A DNA stretch of 64,000 bases, taken from the NCBI GenBank assembly GCA_014377705.1, contig JACMPC010000204.1:1-64000 (forward strand). The letters are read 5' to 3'. The notes beneath the pieces were generated by a model. That model worked only from the letters and a program-made list of their open reading frames with translations, was not told the DNA's origin and did no database searches. Below, in pieces: positions 10,787-18,655 of the stretch. The DNA is from Dermatophilaceae bacterium. GTDB lineage: Bacteria > Actinomycetota > Actinomycetes > Actinomycetales > Dermatophilaceae. Made by a program: the position numbers and the translations under genes. Position 1 is the stretch's first letter. Each line of letters begins with the position of its first letter.

Positions 10787-10875
10787 AGCGCTCTTGTTCA
10801 GTGCGGGATCGGTGACCGGTGATCGTCCACACCTCGCCGAACGCCGCCGATCATCGAGCTGCCGAGTCAATGGAT

Positions 10876-10905
10876 CATCCCGCAGGACGATCGCCCTGCG
10901 GGATG
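10876..10905. terminator. Hairpin between convergent genes (11-bp perfect stem, 8-nt loop)
   Basis: CATCCCGCAGG-ACGATCGC-CCTGCGGGATG. Confidence 0.7.
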
Positions 10906-11031
10906 AATAGGTGGTCGTTCGTCTGCCGGGACTGCCTCTCAGCGAACTGACAACATTCAGAATCCCGCGGCTCGGCGGCACCCTACCAATCTGCCCGGGT
11001 GGGTAGTCCTGCTGCTTGGTCGACCACAGGC

Positions 11032-12321
11032 TCACTTATCCGTGCTGTCGTCGTCCAGCCCGTCGAGCTCTTGGTAGTTGCCGGGTAGCTCGACCACGTC
11101 CGTGAGGGGTCGGTAGCCGGGGTCAAGACGGACGAGATCCCATTCATTGATCCACGCCCGCACGTATTGGCGCATCCTCGTCGCGCCGAGCTGCTCGAGA
11201 CCCGGGACGTCCGGCGGCTCCCACCCATAGGCGCCCCCGTGCAGCTGGCGCAGGGTGAGGTAGGCGCGGTCCAACTCCGCCTGGTCGGGTGGCACCAGCC
11301 GCAGGAGGTCGCGTTCGATGTGCCGCATCCCCACGTCTGCCAGGGCGGCCATCTCGGCATACTCCTCGGTCTGCTTGTCCCGTAGCCGCCCGGGCAGGCT
11401 CTCGCGGTCGTTCTTGCCGGACAGGACAGCAGTCTCGAAGTCGTCAGTGATCGCCGCGACGGCGATGAGGGGCTCCCCTTCGTCGCCGTCGGTCCCGTCA
11501 AGCCAGCGCGCCAGCTCGGCGTACGACCGGCCCCGTTGCAGCAGCGAGTAGCGGCCGATCAGCTCGACCTCGTCGAAGAGCACAACCCAGCCGATGTGCC
11601 CTCCGGCGCGCAGCAACCGCGGCAGGAACCGAAGCCGCTGTCGAGCCAGGTCCCGGGCCTTGACCGGGGAGAAGGTGAACGACCTGGCCTCGCCGACGGC
11701 CTTGAGCTGGCGGCGCAGGTCGGGCATCCGCAGCGGGTCGCCGGACCAGAAACGGACGATGGAGTCGAGGAACTCCTCGTCGGCGCCGGGAGCGTCGCCG
11801 CTGAGTCTCTGGTGGAGCAGGAGGGTCGCGTCGAACCGTTCGTTCATGTCCCGGCCTGGTCCCCGCAGCCACCGCAGCAGCTCGGCGTAGCCGGGGCTGT
11901 CTGGGTCCAGAGCCGCCGCTGCCTCGGCGACGACGTCGCGGGCGCCGTCGGGGGCGACCGCCGACTCCATCGCAGCCCGCAGCACCTTCGCGGGGTCGTG
12001 CAGGGGGGTCTCCTTGCTGATCACCACGGTGCTGACCACGAAGCCGGCGGATGTCGCGAGCTGGCCCAGGTGGGTGAGCAGGTGGCTCTTGCCCTCCCCG
12101 AACCCGGCTCCGAGCAGCATCGAGGCGCGACCGGGCCGGGCGCCGGAAGCGTTGCGGGGCCCGCCGAGGTCCCCGAGCAGCCGGGTGAACCGGTCCTCGA
12201 TGTCGCCCTGGCCTGAGCCGAGCGCGACGACGGCGTCGGCGTTGGGCACTCCGCTGCGCAGCGCCTCGACCGCGCGCCGCCGGGCCAGGCGTTCCTCGTC
12301 CCACTGGTGCTCTCGGCTCAT
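11032..12321 (-). CDS. BREX BrxC/BrxD-like ATPase (former DUF2791)
   Basis: ARRRAVEALRSGVPNADAVVALGSGQGDIEDRF N-terminus, Walker A GAGFGEGKSH, Walker B WVVLFDEVELI. Confidence 0.75.
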   Translation of the reverse strand: MSREHQWDEERLARRRAVEALRSGVPNADAVVALGSGQGDIEDRFTRLLGDLGGPRNASGARPGRASMLLGAGFGEGKSHLLTHLGQLATSAGFVVSTVVISKETPLHDPAKVLRAAMESAVAPDGARDVVAEAAAALDPDSPGYAELLRWLRGPGRDMNERFDATLLLHQRLSGDAPGADEEFLDSIVRFWSGDPLRMPDLRRQLKAVGEARSFTFSPVKARDLARQRLRFLPRLLRAGGHIGWVVLFDEVELIGRYSLLQRGRSYAELARWLDGTDGDEGEPLIAVAAITDDFETAVLSGKNDRESLPGRLRDKQTEEYAEMAALADVGMRHIERDLLRLVPPDQAELDRAYLTLRQLHGGAYGWEPPDVPGLEQLGATRMRQYVRAWINEWDLVRLDPGYRPLTDVVELPGNYQELDGLDDDSTDK

Positions 12322-13328
12322 CGCACGGCCTCCAGCCGGACGTCGAGGCGCACCAGGGAGGCGTACGGGTTGGCGCGTCGCCGATCCCGCACCTCGTCGG
12401 CAACTCTGAGCTGGAGTGCGGCATACGCGGGCAGCCCACGCTTCTCGTCGCTGACCAGCTCTGGCGGCACGACGGCGAGGACCAGCATCCCGGTCAGGTC
12501 GTCTGTCGCGTCGATCAGCTGGCGCAGCAGCTCGTACGCGTCGAGCACCGCGGCTTTGCTGTAGTAGATGCCGGTGCGCTCGGGAACCGGCGGACGTCGG
12601 GCCTCGGCCAGCCGGGTCAGGTCGCAGTGCAGCACCAGTCCTCCATATCCGGCCCGCAGCAGGAGCCGCCCCACTGAGGTGAGCATTGTCCTGGCGTTGT
12701 GCCGGCCGATCCGCGCGTAGATCATCGCGTCCCGGAGCTCACGCAGCCCGACTCGTTCGCCGGTGAGCCAGCCGTGGATCACGAGGGCCTCGGCGGTGTT
12801 GACGTCGCCGCTGCCCAGGTGCGCCTGAGCCAGCCGCAACAGGGCCCGGCGCAGCTCCCGGGGAAAGCTGGTATCGGTGAGCAAAAGATGTTCGAGGGCT
12901 CGCCGCACGCTGCGGTAGAGCTCGCGCGGGTCGAGGTCGTGGTCGGCAGCCACCTCGGCCACGGTGAGGCGGCCGGGGGCGGCGGGGACCGCGATGTTGT
13001 CGTAGGCGGTGTTCACGATGGCCACCGCGACCTGGTCCCAGTCGATCTGCCTGGCTACGGCGAAGAACACCTGGTCGATCATGTGCACCTTGGTCGTCTC
13101 CGCGGACAGCGACACCATCAGGGCGTGCTCGCGGACCGCCACGGCGTGCAGAGATCGCTCAAACCGGTCGGCGACATCGGCGTCGCCGGTCACCACGAGC
13201 TTCACCGACCCTCCGCCGGCCGGCAGGTACGAGGCCAGGTACTCCTGCCCGAGAAAGTCTGCGTAAGAGCCGGCGCTCATCGACCCGCCTCCAAGCACCG
13301 CCGCCCGCGGTCCGGCAGCTGCCGTCAT
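12318..13328 (-). CDS. Putative degenerate ATPase-like partner of the BrxC/D-like ATPase
   Basis: ATGA overlaps with both neighbours; EYLASYLPAGGGSVKLVVTGD lacks a canonical GKT/GKS Walker A; HMIDQVFFAVARQIDWDQVA segment. Confidence 0.55.
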   Translation of the reverse strand: MTAAAGPRAAVLGGGSMSAGSYADFLGQEYLASYLPAGGGSVKLVVTGDADVADRFERSLHAVAVREHALMVSLSAETTKVHMIDQVFFAVARQIDWDQVAVAIVNTAYDNIAVPAAPGRLTVAEVAADHDLDPRELYRSVRRALEHLLLTDTSFPRELRRALLRLAQAHLGSGDVNTAEALVIHGWLTGERVGLRELRDAMIYARIGRHNARTMLTSVGRLLLRAGYGGLVLHCDLTRLAEARRPPVPERTGIYYSKAAVLDAYELLRQLIDATDDLTGMLVLAVVPPELVSDEKRGLPAYAALQLRVADEVRDRRRANPYASLVRLDVRLEAVR

Positions 13329-14140
13329 GAGCGTTCGGTGAAGGAGATTCCCCAGTACAGCTGGTGCTGCCCCGTCTGTGCCACCGTCGCCAGGGTGCCT
13401 GAGCCTCGGGTTCCCGAGCTGGCATGCCAACGCAGGACGCGACCGGACTTCGCTGTCGCGACTCCACTGGAGTCCAGCAGATACAGGTCGCGGGCGAACT
13501 CCGCGCGGGTGTAGTCGCGCTGCTGACCGGGCAGCAACGTCAACACGCCCCACACGTCGACCAGGCGCACCACCGCAGCATCTCGCTGCCTCCCCTGAGA
13601 TCTCACCAGGTCGTAGCCCGACTCGAGGCTCTCCAGGAACGGCTTGGGCCGGAACCGCGGTGGCTTCGCCTGCGAGCTAGCCAGCAGGCCGACCAGTACC
13701 GACGGGCGCAGCCGCCTCTCCCGGCGTCTGTCGATCTCGACGGCGGCCTCCCCGGGCAGCACCTTGATCAGCGATGGATAGCACAGGAGCCGCTCGTCTG
13801 CCTCGAACATCGCCACGTCCTGCGCGGTTGCCGTGTCCAACAGCTCCTGGGCATAGGAACCGGACTCGAGGTGCTCCTGCTCGTCAAAGCCGAAGGACCC
13901 CCCGGCGTCCGATGCGGCCCGGGCTGCGTCCCCGGCCAGAGTCGTCGCCGCGCTCAGAGCGCGCCGCAGGTCACGCAACTGTCCGCGTCCGGCGCCGGCC
14001 TTGGCCTTCTTCAGCTCCCGTGTCACAGCCGCATTGGCCTTGAGCGCGGCGTCAACCCGCTCTCCCGTCGCCGCAAGTGCCGCTTCGAGCCCGCCCATCT
14101 CAGCTACCACCAATCCTTCGTCCATCGCCTGATTGCGCAC
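13325..14140 (-). CDS. Hypothetical protein, coiled-coil N-terminus; first gene of the ATPase operon
   Basis: Ala/Lys/Glu-rich N-terminus (LKANAAVTRELKKAKAGAGRGQLRDLRRALSAATTLAGDAARAA); TGA overlaps ATG of the next gene. Confidence 0.6.
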   Translation of the reverse strand: MRNQAMDEGLVVAEMGGLEAALAATGERVDAALKANAAVTRELKKAKAGAGRGQLRDLRRALSAATTLAGDAARAASDAGGSFGFDEQEHLESGSYAQELLDTATAQDVAMFEADERLLCYPSLIKVLPGEAAVEIDRRRERRLRPSVLVGLLASSQAKPPRFRPKPFLESLESGYDLVRSQGRQRDAAVVRLVDVWGVLTLLPGQQRDYTRAEFARDLYLLDSSGVATAKSGRVLRWHASSGTRGSGTLATVAQTGQHQLYWGISFTERS

Positions 14141-14358
14141 TGGTGAAGGAGGCTACCTGAAGCTGGGTCGAAGGCCGATGGTGCTCGTCTTCGTGTTGGA
14201 CGCAACACGGTTCATCTTCCGCGCCGGGGTGCGTTGAGGTTCCGCACGGCACGTCGTACGCTCACAGAGAAACGACTACTGACGAGCCCGGTTCATGCAA
14301 GACCGCGACTGGTGGGCCATCAAGCGCGGCGATCACCACAGCCGAAGAGGAGAGCTCA

Positions 14359-15362: not shown

Positions 15363-16025
15363 ATGACGGACACGTCCGTCGACGTTGAGGCGCTCGATCG
15401 CTGGATCCGAAGGTTTGCCGAGGAGGTGAGCAAGAACAAGGATCTGCTCACCGATCTCGACTCGGCCATCGGCGATGCCGACCATGGCTCAAACATGGAC
15501 CGGGGTATGTCGGCCACGGTCGCTGCGCTCGACGAGGCAAGCTCGCAGGGGCGCCCCCTCACGACGGCCGGCGCGCTGCTGAAGACCGTTGGTATGACTG
15601 TTGTCAGCTCTATCGGCGGCGCCAGCGGTCCCCTGTACGGGACCCTCTTCCTTCGGATGGGGACCTCAGCCGGGGATGTCGAGGCTCTCGACGACGCTGG
15701 TTTCTCCGCGGCGCTCACAGCGGGTTTGGCGGGTGTGGTCGCCCGGGGCAAGGCCGAGCTGGGTGACAAGACGATGTGCGATGCTCTCGCCCCCGCGTGC
15801 GCCGCTCTTGACGCCTCGCTCGCTGGGGGGGCCGGCCTCAGCGAGGCATTGGCGGTTGCCGCGACCTCCGCCGACACGGGCCGGGACGCCACCATCCCGA
15901 TGCTCGCACGCAAGGGCCGGGCAAGCTACCTCGGTGAACGCAGCATCGGGCACCAGGACCCAGGGGCGACGTCTGTCGCCTTGCTGGTGAACGCGGCCGC
16001 AGCCACCCTGGGCAGCCGCCCGTGA
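15363..16025 (+). CDS. dhaL: Dihydroxyacetone kinase subunit DhaL
   Basis: LTDLDSAIGDADHGSNMDRGM, GGASGPLYGTLFLRM, DPGATSVALL. Confidence 0.95.
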   Translation: MTDTSVDVEALDRWIRRFAEEVSKNKDLLTDLDSAIGDADHGSNMDRGMSATVAALDEASSQGRPLTTAGALLKTVGMTVVSSIGGASGPLYGTLFLRMGTSAGDVEALDDAGFSAALTAGLAGVVARGKAELGDKTMCDALAPACAALDASLAGGAGLSEALAVAATSADTGRDATIPMLARKGRASYLGERSIGHQDPGATSVALLVNAAAATLGSRP

Positions 16026-18655
16026 GCGAAGCGCGGCCCGTGAGCGCAGCGCCACTGGTCGGGATCGTTCTCGTCTCCCACAGTGCAGCGCTGGCGAAAG
16101 CCGCTCTCGCGCTGGCGGGGGAGATGCTCCACAGCAAGCCGGTCCGGATCGAGCTTGCTGCCGGGCTCGACGAGCGGACATTCGGAACCGATGCCGTTCA
16201 GATTCTGGAGGCCATCCAGGCGGCTGACGACGGTGCTGGGGTCGTGGTGCTGATGGACCTCGGGAGCGCGGTCCTCTCCGCCGAGCTCGCCCTCGAGCTT
16301 CTGGACGACGAGGCGGCCCGCGAACGCGTGCTCCTGTGCCCGGCACCCATGGTCGAGGGTCTGGTCGTGGCGGCGGTCGCGGCGGCGGGGGGAGCCACCC
16401 GAAACGAGGTCTGCGCAGGGGCGGTGGGCGCCCTGGAGGGCAAACGGTCGCAGCTGGGTGTCGCCGAGATTGAACCCCTGCGGGAGTCCGGGCAGCTTGT
16501 TGCCGCTGAGCCCGGACCCTCGCGAGAGTCCGGGCAGTCCGTTGCCGCTGAGCCCGGACCCTCGCTGGAGGGCACCTTCGTCGTGTCCAACGAGCACGGG
16601 CTGCACGCGCGCCCGGCCGCCAAGCTCGTCCAGGAGGTCAGGTCACTGGACGCGGTCGTCATGCTGCGCAATCTCAGTACGGGGGCGGGTCCGGTCCCGG
16701 CGTCGAGCCTTTCGCGGGTGGCGACGCTCGGCGCCCTGCGCGATCACGAGATCCAGGTGTCTGTGACGGGAAGCCATGCGCGTGAAGCCCTGGATCACGT
16801 CCTGGCACTGGCTGGCCGCGCGTTCGACGAGGATGCCGACAGCCCTGGAACGCCTGCTCGGGGCGGACGCATGGCTGCCGGAGGTCACGAGCCCGAGGCG
16901 GACGACAGTGACAGGACCGAGGCGGACGACAGCGAAGGGACGACGCCACCGGACGGCCCTGACTGGGGCACCAAGCCCACTTCAGCGCGACCGGCCGCCC
17001 CGGGAATCGGGATAGGTCCCGTCTGGAAGGCCGGGCCACTGGCGGCTCTGGCCGTGCCCGATGCAACCACCGAGAACGCCGCCGCGGACTGGCGTCGGGT
17101 CCGCCGGGCGATCGCCGATGTCCGGCGCGAGATCCGGCGTTCCCAGGCACTCGCCGTACGGGATGTAGGAGAGGGGGACGCAGCGATCTTCGACGCGCAC
17201 CTGCTCCTGCTCGACGATGGCGACGTGCTGGACGATGTGCACAGCCGGATCGACTCCGGTCAGGCAGCCGCCCCGGCGTGGGCCACCACCATCGCGCGGG
17301 TTGAAGGGGACTTCTCAGCACTGAGCGATCCCTATCTGCGGGCACGCGCAGGCGACGTCAGAGCCGTGGGGGACCAGGTCCTTCGGGTTCTGCTCGGCAT
17401 CCCCGATGTGACCGCCGCGGTCAGCGGGGTCTTTGTGGCATCGGACCTCACCCCGGCGCAGGTGGCAGGGTTCGACGCAGAGAAGGTCAAAGCGGTGATC
17501 CTTGCCCACGGCACCCCGACGTCGCACGGCGCGATCCTCGCCCGGGGCAAAGGGATTCCCGTCGTGGTCGGAGCGGGCACGAGCGTCCTGGACATTCCCG
17601 ACGGTACCCTCGTGGCCGTCGACGGGGCCAGCGGCGAGGTGGCAGTAGCGCCGGATGATGAGCTGCTGGAGCGCTTCCGGGCTCGAGGGCGGGAGCTGGC
17701 GCTCGCCCGGATCACCGCCCTGGCACGTTCCTCGACGCCGGCCGTGACAAAAGACGGCACACACGTGGTCGTCGGAGCCAACCTGGGCTCCCAGGAGGAC
17801 GCGACACTCGCCGCGAAGTCCGGTGCCGACCTCGCCGGACTGGTACGCACCGAGTTTCTTTTCCTCGGCCGTTCGCAGGCGCCGGATGTGGACGAACAGG
17901 AGGCGGTCTATCTCGCCCTGGCCGAGACCCTCGGGGGTCGTCGACTGACCTTGCGCACCTTGGACGTCGGGGGAGACAAACCACTGGACTACCTGCCCAT
18001 GCCTCTCGAGGCCAACCCGTTCCTCGGGCTTCGTGGCTTACGTCTCTCCCTTGCCAACCCCGGCCTGCTGGCCGACCAGCTGCTCGCCTGTGTCAGGACT
18101 GCCCATGCGACCCCGGTGAGCCTCATGTTCCCGATGGTCAGCACCGTTGCCGAGCTCGCCGAGGCACGCCGGCTCCTGGCCGATGCCGTTGTCCTCGAGG
18201 GGCGCGGCACACCCCCGGGGCTGCTCGTGGGGATCATGGTCGAAGTACCCGCAACGGCGTTGAAGACGGAAGCCTTCGCGCGCCATGTCGACTTCTTCTC
18301 GATCGGCACCAACGACCTGACGCAGTACACGCTGGCCGCCGAGCGAGGCAACGACGCTGTCGCGGAGGTGGCGGATCCATACGACCCGGGGGTCCTGCGT
18401 CTCATCCAGACCGTGTGTGATGGCGCGGGGACGGCTTTGGTCGCCGTCTGCGGGGAGCTGGCCGCCGACACCCGGGCCACGTCGCTCCTGGTCGGGCTGG
18501 GTGTTCGGGAGCTCTCGATGACTTCCTCGGCGATACCCGAGGTCAAGGAAGCCATCCGGACGACCGACCTCAGCGAGGCTCGCCACCTTGCCGCCCAGGC
18601 CGTCACGGCTGTCGGGCCGGAGGCCGTCAAGGCTCTGCTCACGGGCCACTCCTGA
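16022..18655 (+). CDS. dhaM: DhaM-HPr-EI multiphosphoryl transfer protein
   Basis: DhaM IVLVSHSAALAKA; HPr NEHGLHARPAAKLV; EI TSHGAILARGKGIP, FFSIGTNDLTQYTLAAER; GTG start overlaps dhaL stop. Confidence 0.93.
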   Translation: MSEARPVSAAPLVGIVLVSHSAALAKAALALAGEMLHSKPVRIELAAGLDERTFGTDAVQILEAIQAADDGAGVVVLMDLGSAVLSAELALELLDDEAARERVLLCPAPMVEGLVVAAVAAAGGATRNEVCAGAVGALEGKRSQLGVAEIEPLRESGQLVAAEPGPSRESGQSVAAEPGPSLEGTFVVSNEHGLHARPAAKLVQEVRSLDAVVMLRNLSTGAGPVPASSLSRVATLGALRDHEIQVSVTGSHAREALDHVLALAGRAFDEDADSPGTPARGGRMAAGGHEPEADDSDRTEADDSEGTTPPDGPDWGTKPTSARPAAPGIGIGPVWKAGPLAALAVPDATTENAAADWRRVRRAIADVRREIRRSQALAVRDVGEGDAAIFDAHLLLLDDGDVLDDVHSRIDSGQAAAPAWATTIARVEGDFSALSDPYLRARAGDVRAVGDQVLRVLLGIPDVTAAVSGVFVASDLTPAQVAGFDAEKVKAVILAHGTPTSHGAILARGKGIPVVVGAGTSVLDIPDGTLVAVDGASGEVAVAPDDELLERFRARGRELALARITALARSSTPAVTKDGTHVVVGANLGSQEDATLAAKSGADLAGLVRTEFLFLGRSQAPDVDEQEAVYLALAETLGGRRLTLRTLDVGGDKPLDYLPMPLEANPFLGLRGLRLSLANPGLLADQLLACVRTAHATPVSLMFPMVSTVAELAEARRLLADAVVLEGRGTPPGLLVGIMVEVPATALKTEAFARHVDFFSIGTNDLTQYTLAAERGNDAVAEVADPYDPGVLRLIQTVCDGAGTALVAVCGELAADTRATSLLVGLGVRELSMTSSAIPEVKEAIRTTDLSEARHLAAQAVTAVGPEAVKALLTGHS

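What the first reader, a model, noticed from the sequence alone, without database searches (positions are those of the whole stretch)
11032..14140. Three-gene, doubly ATGA-coupled operon with a BrxC/D-like ATPase but no BREX or Shango partners
Seen: a 271-aa coiled-coil protein, a 336-aa protein and a 429-aa P-loop ATPase are joined by exact ATGA overlaps at 13325-13328 and 12318-12321. A hairpin terminator lies downstream. Known: the ATPase N-terminus (EALRSGVPNADAVVALGSGQGDIEDRF) and Walker motifs match the DUF2791/BrxC-BrxD family, found in BREX and in Shango-like defence. No methylase, PglZ, helicase or TerB gene is nearby. Inference: the middle protein may be a P-loop-less partner (GGGSVKLVVTGD), making a compact ATPase-pseudoATPase-adaptor module for defence or DNA-end/chromosome handling.
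Basis: partly seen in the sequence, partly recalled or inferred. Interest (0 to 1): 0.78.

Follow-up and report, generated by a model that had tools for sequence, protein, structure and literature searches.

The report
ATPase–pseudoATPase trio, likely phage-defence module
Three tightly coupled genes encode a DNA-defence-type ATPase, a sister protein that has lost its ATP-binding site, and an unknown coiled-coil protein; relatives of the same trio sit next to helicase–nuclease genes and known phage-defence genes, so this is probably a stripped-down form of an undescribed bacterial defence system.

Summary
Three genes on the minus strand (11032-14140) are joined by two exact ATGA overlaps. Pfam BrxC_BrxD (PF10923) matches the 429-aa ATPase. 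It also matches the 336-aa middle protein, which lacks Walker A in 20 of 20 homologues, so the middle protein is a degenerate BrxC/D paralogue. The 271-aa protein belongs to an undescribed family (helical hairpin plus alpha/beta part, no fold match).

The trio is rare and patchy but conserved in fixed order in 20 actinobacterial genomes, under purifying selection (dN/dS 0.20-0.29). The decisive new evidence is from relatives. In a sister lineage the trio is followed by a conserved ~190-aa protein and a SNF2 helicase carrying an Mrr nuclease. In others a lone SNF2 or SF2 helicase follows. Several loci adjoin known defence genes: DISARM DrmA/DrmB, a type IV PLD-helicase restriction enzyme, methylases, ZacC. 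The window's lineage has the trio alone, beside metabolic genes.

It is not BREX, Shango, DISARM or PbeABCD by tested features. Best reading: an ORC/Cdc6-like hetero-AAA+ loader/sensor of an undescribed helicase-coupled defence family, here in helicase-less form. No phage test exists, and the effector of the window form is unknown.

The parts
11032..12321 (-). P1: 429-aa BrxC/D-family AAA+ ATPase (stop included)
   Evidence: PF10923 E=5.1e-15, 55.7 bits over 22.2 cut-off; Walker A and B intact in 20/20 homologues
12085..12108 (-). Walker A AGFGEGKS of P1 (residues 72-79)
   Evidence: PROSITE-type [AG]x4GK[ST] match
11560..11586 (-). Walker B VVLFDEVEL of P1 (residues 246-254)
   Evidence: D250, E251 and E253 invariant in 20/20
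12318..13328 (-). P2: 336-aa BrxC/D-family pseudo-ATPase (stop included)
   Evidence: PF10923 E=1.1e-10, 13/13 homologues match PF10923; no [AG]x4GK[ST] in 20/20; AF2 pLDDT 86
13173..13223 (-). Degenerated Walker A region of P2 (PAGGGSVKLVVTGDADV)
   Evidence: alignment of 20 homologues
12591..12647 (-). Degenerated Walker B region of P2 (D236 kept, catalytic Glu lost)
   Evidence: alignment of 20 homologues
13325..14140 (-). P3: 271-aa protein of an undescribed family (stop included; start codon uncertain)
   Evidence: no Pfam, NCBIfam or PADLOC family; conserved in fixed order in 20 loci, truncated by contig ends in L017 and L060; AF2 pLDDT 87, no PDB or viral fold match
13901..14089 (-). 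Predicted helical hairpin / coiled coil of P3 (residues 18-80)
   Evidence: AF2 helices 18-52 and 55-80; profile resembles designed antiparallel coiled coils
13325..13328 (-). ATGA overlap P3/P2
   Evidence: sequence; conserved in 9/17 loci
12318..12321 (-). ATGA overlap P2/P1
   Evidence: sequence; conserved in 16/20 loci
10875..10906 (.). Perfect 14-bp inverted repeat between the trio and the convergent permease gene; possible bidirectional terminator without U-tract
   Evidence: fold -42 kcal/mol, z -3.6; not called by terminator scan

Best explanation
The trio is the ATP-driven core of an undescribed actinobacterial defence family against phages or other foreign DNA. P1 is an ORC/Cdc6-type AAA+ ATPase of the BrxC/D family. 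P2 is its catalytically dead paralogue and most likely alternates with P1 in a hetero-oligomer, giving structure and perhaps arginine fingers but no ATP hydrolysis. P3 is a coiled-coil adaptor. By analogy with the BrxD-BrxHI dyad, the complex loads, activates or licenses a SF2/SNF2 helicase on foreign DNA. In the sister lineage that helicase is encoded next door and carries an Mrr nuclease, which would be the effector. In the window's lineage helicase and nuclease are not encoded at the locus, so it must use an unlinked helicase or act by ATPase-dependent binding alone. Shown: gene content, families, loss of Walker motifs in P2, conservation, purifying selection, and helicase and nuclease coupling in relatives. 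Inferred: complex formation, helicase loading, defence function.
For: PF10923 on both P1 and P2, on 13/13 P2s. Fixed order P3-P2-P1 in 20 genomes. Walker A/B kept in 20/20 P1, Walker A lost in 20/20 P2. dN/dS 0.20-0.29 in all three genes. Sister lineage: trio + ~190-aa P4 + SNF2 helicase in L056, L057, L059, L060, L061 and, with a frame break in the helicase, L058. The helicase has Mrr_cat E=3.6e-23, QxK kept in L058-L061, and resembles ZorD/DpdE. L047: trio + SNF2; L017: trio + SF2 helicase. Defence neighbours: DrmA, DrmB, DruE/DruM-like and TmtA-like at L031/L034; type IV PLD-helicase REase at L047 and L088; DrmMI-like MTase and Dsr1-like at L061, ZacC at L057. Rare, patchy distribution, not found in three same-genus genomes. 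BrxD is an ORC/Cdc6 AAA+ forming a dyad with BrxHI helicase, proposed loader (PMC12839542).
Against: In the window lineage (window, L012-L016, L029, L046 and others) the neighbours are mostly ordinary metabolic genes, not a defence island. No effector is encoded there, and the own genome's nearest SNF2 (C118) lacks the Mrr region and looks like a generic actinobacterial SNF2. Not found on plasmids, phages or viral contigs. The enrichment of defence neighbours was not tested against a background. No experiment exists.
Confidence: 0.6

Rival explanations
1. A housekeeping or stress DNA-maintenance module: the hetero-AAA+ complex loads or remodels a host helicase (for example the generic SNF2 on C118) during repair or chromosome handling, and the helicase-nuclease coupling in the sister lineage is a derived use for defence.
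For: Window-lineage loci lie among metabolic genes with no nuclease; strong purifying selection; an unlinked SNF2 helicase exists in the genome.
Against: About 1% or less of sampled genomes in the same order or class carry it, and it was not found in three same-genus genomes (only 68-87% complete); housekeeping modules are not that patchy. Several relatives are in defence islands.
Confidence: 0.2
2. A decaying remnant of the five-gene helicase-nuclease system: the effector is gone and the trio is functionless.
For: P4 and the SNF2-Mrr helicase are missing at the window-type loci and no trio-specific helicase was found elsewhere in those genomes.
Against: dN/dS 0.20-0.29 for all three genes over 64-85% identity; intact Walker motifs and overlaps; trio-only loci are spread over several families.
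Confidence: 0.05
3. A targeting ATPase of a mobile element, in the way TnsC or TniB serve transposons.
For: Weak Foldseek similarity of P2 to TnsC; ORC-like ATPases serve transposons.
Against: No transposase adjacent in the loci read, except an IS607-like gene ~5 kb away at L029 (judged by eye); no plasmid, phage or viral-contig copies.
Confidence: 0.05
4. A known system in divergent form (BREX type 2, Shango or PbeABCD).
For: BrxD and SngB HMMs match weakly; the L017 helicase matches PbeA.
Against: Defining partners absent; score 47 against a BrxD cut-off of 350 bits; PbeC is a CxC ABC ATPase, not BrxC/D (PMC10853773).
Confidence: 0.06

Closest known systems
BREX type 2 BrxD-BrxHI dyad
   Same: PF10923 ORC/Cdc6-type standalone ATPase of about 430 aa, with a helicase next to it in relatives of the trio
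   Different: No BrxC, PglX, PglZ or PglW; far below the BrxD equivalog cut-off (47 against 350 bits); has a dedicated pseudo-ATPase and coiled-coil partner; linked helicase is SNF2(-Mrr) or XPB-like, not the Lhr-like BrxHI
Shango (SngABC)
   Same: Compact three-gene defence system with a BrxC/D-like ATPase, and a helicase partner in some relatives of the trio
   Different: No TerB gene; SngB HMM E=0.02 for P1; the two smaller genes are pseudo-ATPase and coiled-coil protein
BrxC plus BrxB/BrxF (active plus inactive STAND/ORC ATPase) of BREX types 1 and 3
   Same: Pairing of an active AAA+ ATPase with a Walker-less relative (PMC12839542)
   Different: P2 matches PF10923/BrxD models, not BrxB models in PADLOC; the rest of BREX is absent
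Zorya type I ZorD
   Same: SNF2 helicase plus Mrr-like nuclease, as in the sister-lineage five-gene operons
   Different: No ZorA/ZorB motor seen in the operon; helicase absent in the window
PbeABCD
   Same: The L017 helicase resembles PbeA (E=1e-56)
   Different: PbeC is a CxC-type ABC ATPase and PbeD a DndE relative; no homology to P1-P3

Membership tests
PF10923 BrxC_BrxD protein family | Score above Pfam gathering cut-off (22.2 bits) | tested here: met
   P1 55.7 bits, P2 41.4 bits; 13/13 P2 homologues match
PF10923 BrxC_BrxD protein family | Intact Walker A and B | tested here: met
   Met by P1 in 20/20; not met by P2 in 20/20, so P2 is a pseudo-ATPase member
BREX (type 2 BrxD) | BrxD equivalog cut-off | tested here: not met
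   NF033438 47 bits (P1) and 36.8 bits (P2) against 350
BREX (type 2 BrxD) | PglZ, PglX, BrxC and helicase at the locus | tested here: not met
   Neighbours are metabolic genes; the only BrxC/D matches in the whole genome are these two genes
Shango | TerB-domain SngA and helicase SngC next to SngB | tested here: not met
   No such genes adjacent in the window; SngB HMM E=0.02
DISARM | DrmA, DrmB, DrmC and a methylase | tested here: not met
   None near the window trio; DrmA/DrmB adjoin the divergent trio only at L031/L034
PbeABCD | PbeC CxC ABC ATPase plus PbeD DndE | tested here: not met
   P1 and P2 are PF10923; no Pbe hit to P1-P3; PbeC identity from PMC10853773
Zorya type I | ZorA/ZorB motor with ZorD | tested here: not met
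   Window: absent. Sister lineage has a ZorD-like SNF2-Mrr helicase but no ZorA/ZorB seen in the operons read
Anti-phage defence system (function) | Reduces phage plating or foreign-DNA uptake | not testable with these tools
   Needs bench assay
ORC-like hetero-AAA+ complex | P1 and P2 assemble with P2 contributing in trans | not testable with these tools
   Only monomer models available; P2 keeps invariant R160, R209, R213, R269, R297, R308

The most novel reading that the evidence does not exclude
A previously undescribed defence family whose core is a hetero-AAA+ machine of an active and a dead BrxC/D ATPase plus a new coiled-coil protein. It exists as a five-gene form with a SNF2-Mrr helicase-nuclease effector, a four-gene form with a plain helicase, and a minimal three-gene form (the window) that borrows a host helicase or blocks foreign DNA without a nuclease.
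Probability: 0.45. Interest if true: 0.75.

Novelty: new variant of a known kind. Interest (0 to 1): 0.6.

Why it matters
BrxC/D-type ATPases recur in defence (BREX, Shango), but what they do is unsettled; loading a helicase is only proposed. A minimal ATPase/pseudo-ATPase/adaptor trio of about 1,030 residues, with natural variants that add a helicase or a helicase-nuclease, offers a small system for testing that loader idea directly. It also adds two protein families without known fold or name (P3 and P4).

Tried and rejected
(1) PbeABCD: raised by the PbeA match of the L017 helicase; rejected because PbeC is a CxC ABC ATPase and PbeD a DndE relative. (2) Two genomes with weak P2 hits: G025 is a chance match in an unrelated suf-type locus and G066 was not pursued. 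(3) G352, G017 and G821 matched only through the shared family; the first two loci have the Shango-like layout (about 800-aa protein, BrxC/D ATPase, about 1,100-aa helicase), judged by eye and not by HMM. (4) A split system with P4 and helicase elsewhere in trio-only genomes: only generic SNF2 helicases and no P4 nearby. (5) Fold matches for P3: none significant in PDB or viral models; for P2 only weak P-loop/AAA+ hits (RdrA ring, BrxC, TnsC). (6) Copies on plasmids, phages, viral contigs: none. (7) An empty-site comparison failed: the flanking permease was not found in five relatives. (9) Rfam families and tRNA genes at the locus: none.

Full report
OBSERVATION. The three minus-strand ORFs exist exactly as described. 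I call them P1 (429 aa, 11032-12321), P2 (336 aa, 12318-13328) and P3 (271 aa, 13325-14140); transcription order is P3-P2-P1. Both junctions are ATGA overlaps. GC3 is 0.81-0.89, in line with neighbouring genes. A perfect 14-bp inverted repeat (10875-10906) lies between the trio and the convergent permease gene; it folds well (z -3.6) but has no U-tract and was not called by the terminator scan. Neighbours are an alkaline phosphatase, a beta-propeller phosphoesterase, a permease and the dihydroxyacetone-kinase genes dhaK-dhaL-dhaM/PTS EI, none a defence gene.

WHAT THE PROTEINS ARE. Pfam PF10923 (BrxC_BrxD) matches P1 at 5.1e-15 and, independently, P2 at 1.1e-10, both above the curated cut-off. 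PADLOC and NCBIfam BrxD models agree but far below the BrxD equivalog cut-off. So both are members of the broad family but neither is BrxD proper. P1 keeps Walker A ([AG]xFGxGKSH, AGFGEGKS in the window) and Walker B (DE[VLT]EL) in 20 of 20 homologues; P2 has no P-loop in 20 of 20 and has lost the Walker B glutamate. All 13 P2 homologues scanned hit PF10923, and profile comparison aligns P1 and P2 through the ATPase core (E=2.3e-4, probability 44%). The P2 model (pLDDT 86) finds only P-loop NTPases and AAA+ proteins, weakly (RdrA ring probability 0.92, E=0.02; BrxC; TnsC). P3 has no Pfam, NCBIfam or PADLOC family; its confident model (pLDDT 87) shows a helical hairpin (18-80) followed by an alpha/beta part, with no match in PDB or viral models. 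The C-terminal helices and strands could be a winged helix, but that is only my reading of the secondary structure.

CONSERVATION. A scan of 84,980 species genomes gave six loci; with the window and the whole-genome searches the total is 20 genomes. In all 20, P3-P2-P1 occur together in that order (P3 is cut by contig ends in L017 and L060). The 4-nt overlap P2/P1 is kept in 16 of 20. dN/dS against five close relatives is 0.20-0.29 for every gene, so the P-loop-less P2 is maintained as a functional protein. Distribution is patchy: counting only true trios, 2 of 297 genomes of the order, 4 of 395 of the class, 3 of 397 of the phylum sample, 7 of 249 of another class and 2 of 201 of another family, G000 included where sampled; none in three same-genus genomes, which are only 68-87% complete. 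The own genome holds no other BrxC/D protein.

THE DECISIVE CONTEXT. In a sister lineage, L056, L057, L059, L060 and L061 show trio + P4 (185-194 aa, a second undescribed family) + a SNF2 helicase of about 720-740 aa (in L057 cut by the contig end); L058 has the same with a frame break in the helicase. The L059 helicase has a C-terminal Mrr_cat nuclease domain (3.6e-23); the QxK motif is kept in L058-L061 and degenerate in L056. The best PADLOC matches of these helicases are ZorD and DpdE. L047 has trio + shorter SNF2 helicase without the nuclease motif, and L017 trio + XPB/PbeA-like SF2 helicase. Defence neighbours recur: DrmA, DrmB, DruE/DruM-like and a TmtA-like HSP90-helicase at the divergent L031/L034 trio; a type IV PLD-helicase-DUF3427 enzyme at L047 and at L088; a DrmMI-like methylase and a Dsr1-like protein at L061 and ZacC at L057; a C5 methylase about 2.2 kb from the trio at L013. 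The P2 tree separates a helicase-coupled clade (90/81) from the trio-only lineages that include the window.

THE WINDOW FORM. Window-type loci have neither P4 nor a helicase adjacent, and mostly ordinary neighbours. Searching 13 genomes (12 of trio carriers without the five-gene operon, plus G1051 as positive control) with the coupled helicase found only generic actinobacterial SNF2 helicases in the former, without the nuclease and without P4 nearby. So the effector, if there is one, is in trans and unknown.

MECHANISM. In BREX type 2, BrxD is an ORC/Cdc6-type AAA+ ATPase tightly linked to the BrxHI helicase and proposed to load or activate it; BREX also pairs BrxC with the Walker-less BrxB/BrxF (PMC12839542). 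The trio fits this scheme with dedicated parts: P1 hydrolyses ATP, P2 is a dead subunit that could donate conserved arginines (R160, R209, R213, R269, R297, R308 invariant), P3 is an adaptor, and the helicase (-nuclease) is the output. Assembly, loading and defence are inferred; no experiment exists. Confidence in a defence role for the family is about 0.6; a housekeeping role about 0.2.

NOVELTY. No paper found names this trio or the five-gene operon, and PADLOC-DB 2023 lacks P3 and P4. The library misses most subscription papers, and later defence databases could not be searched, so a description elsewhere is possible. I rate it a new variant of a known kind: BrxC/D-ATPase-centred defence with a new composition.

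Noticed in passing
L056:6724-7287, L057:11352-11915, L059:11676-12230, L060:6125-6679, L061:11866-12447: P4, a conserved 185-194-aa family (IPFR...GEPVEF...ETP...LW) seen between the trio ATPase and the SNF2-Mrr helicase; no Pfam or PADLOC match.
   Followed up: partly
L031 and L034 (G561): Large defence island with DrmA, DrmB, DruE-like, DruM-like C5 methylase, a methyl-directed type II REase, a TmtA-like HSP90-helicase of 1,567 aa and a divergent trio.
   Followed up: partly
L047:11434-12920: Two small genes upstream of the trio (266 aa and a 201-aa protein with a Cys-rich start, possibly a zinc ribbon) with no Pfam match, possibly further components.
   Followed up: no
L077 (G000:C118:3-3077): SNF2 helicase of at least 1,024 aa in the window's own genome, 38% identical to the trio-linked helicase core but without the Mrr domain; possible trans partner.
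   Followed up: partly
window 16022-18652: DhaM fused to HPr and PTS enzyme I in one 877-aa protein, downstream of dhaK and dhaL.
   Followed up: no
window 14191-14210: Terminator-like hairpin on the plus strand between the start of P3 and dhaK, in the divergent intergenic region.
   Followed up: no
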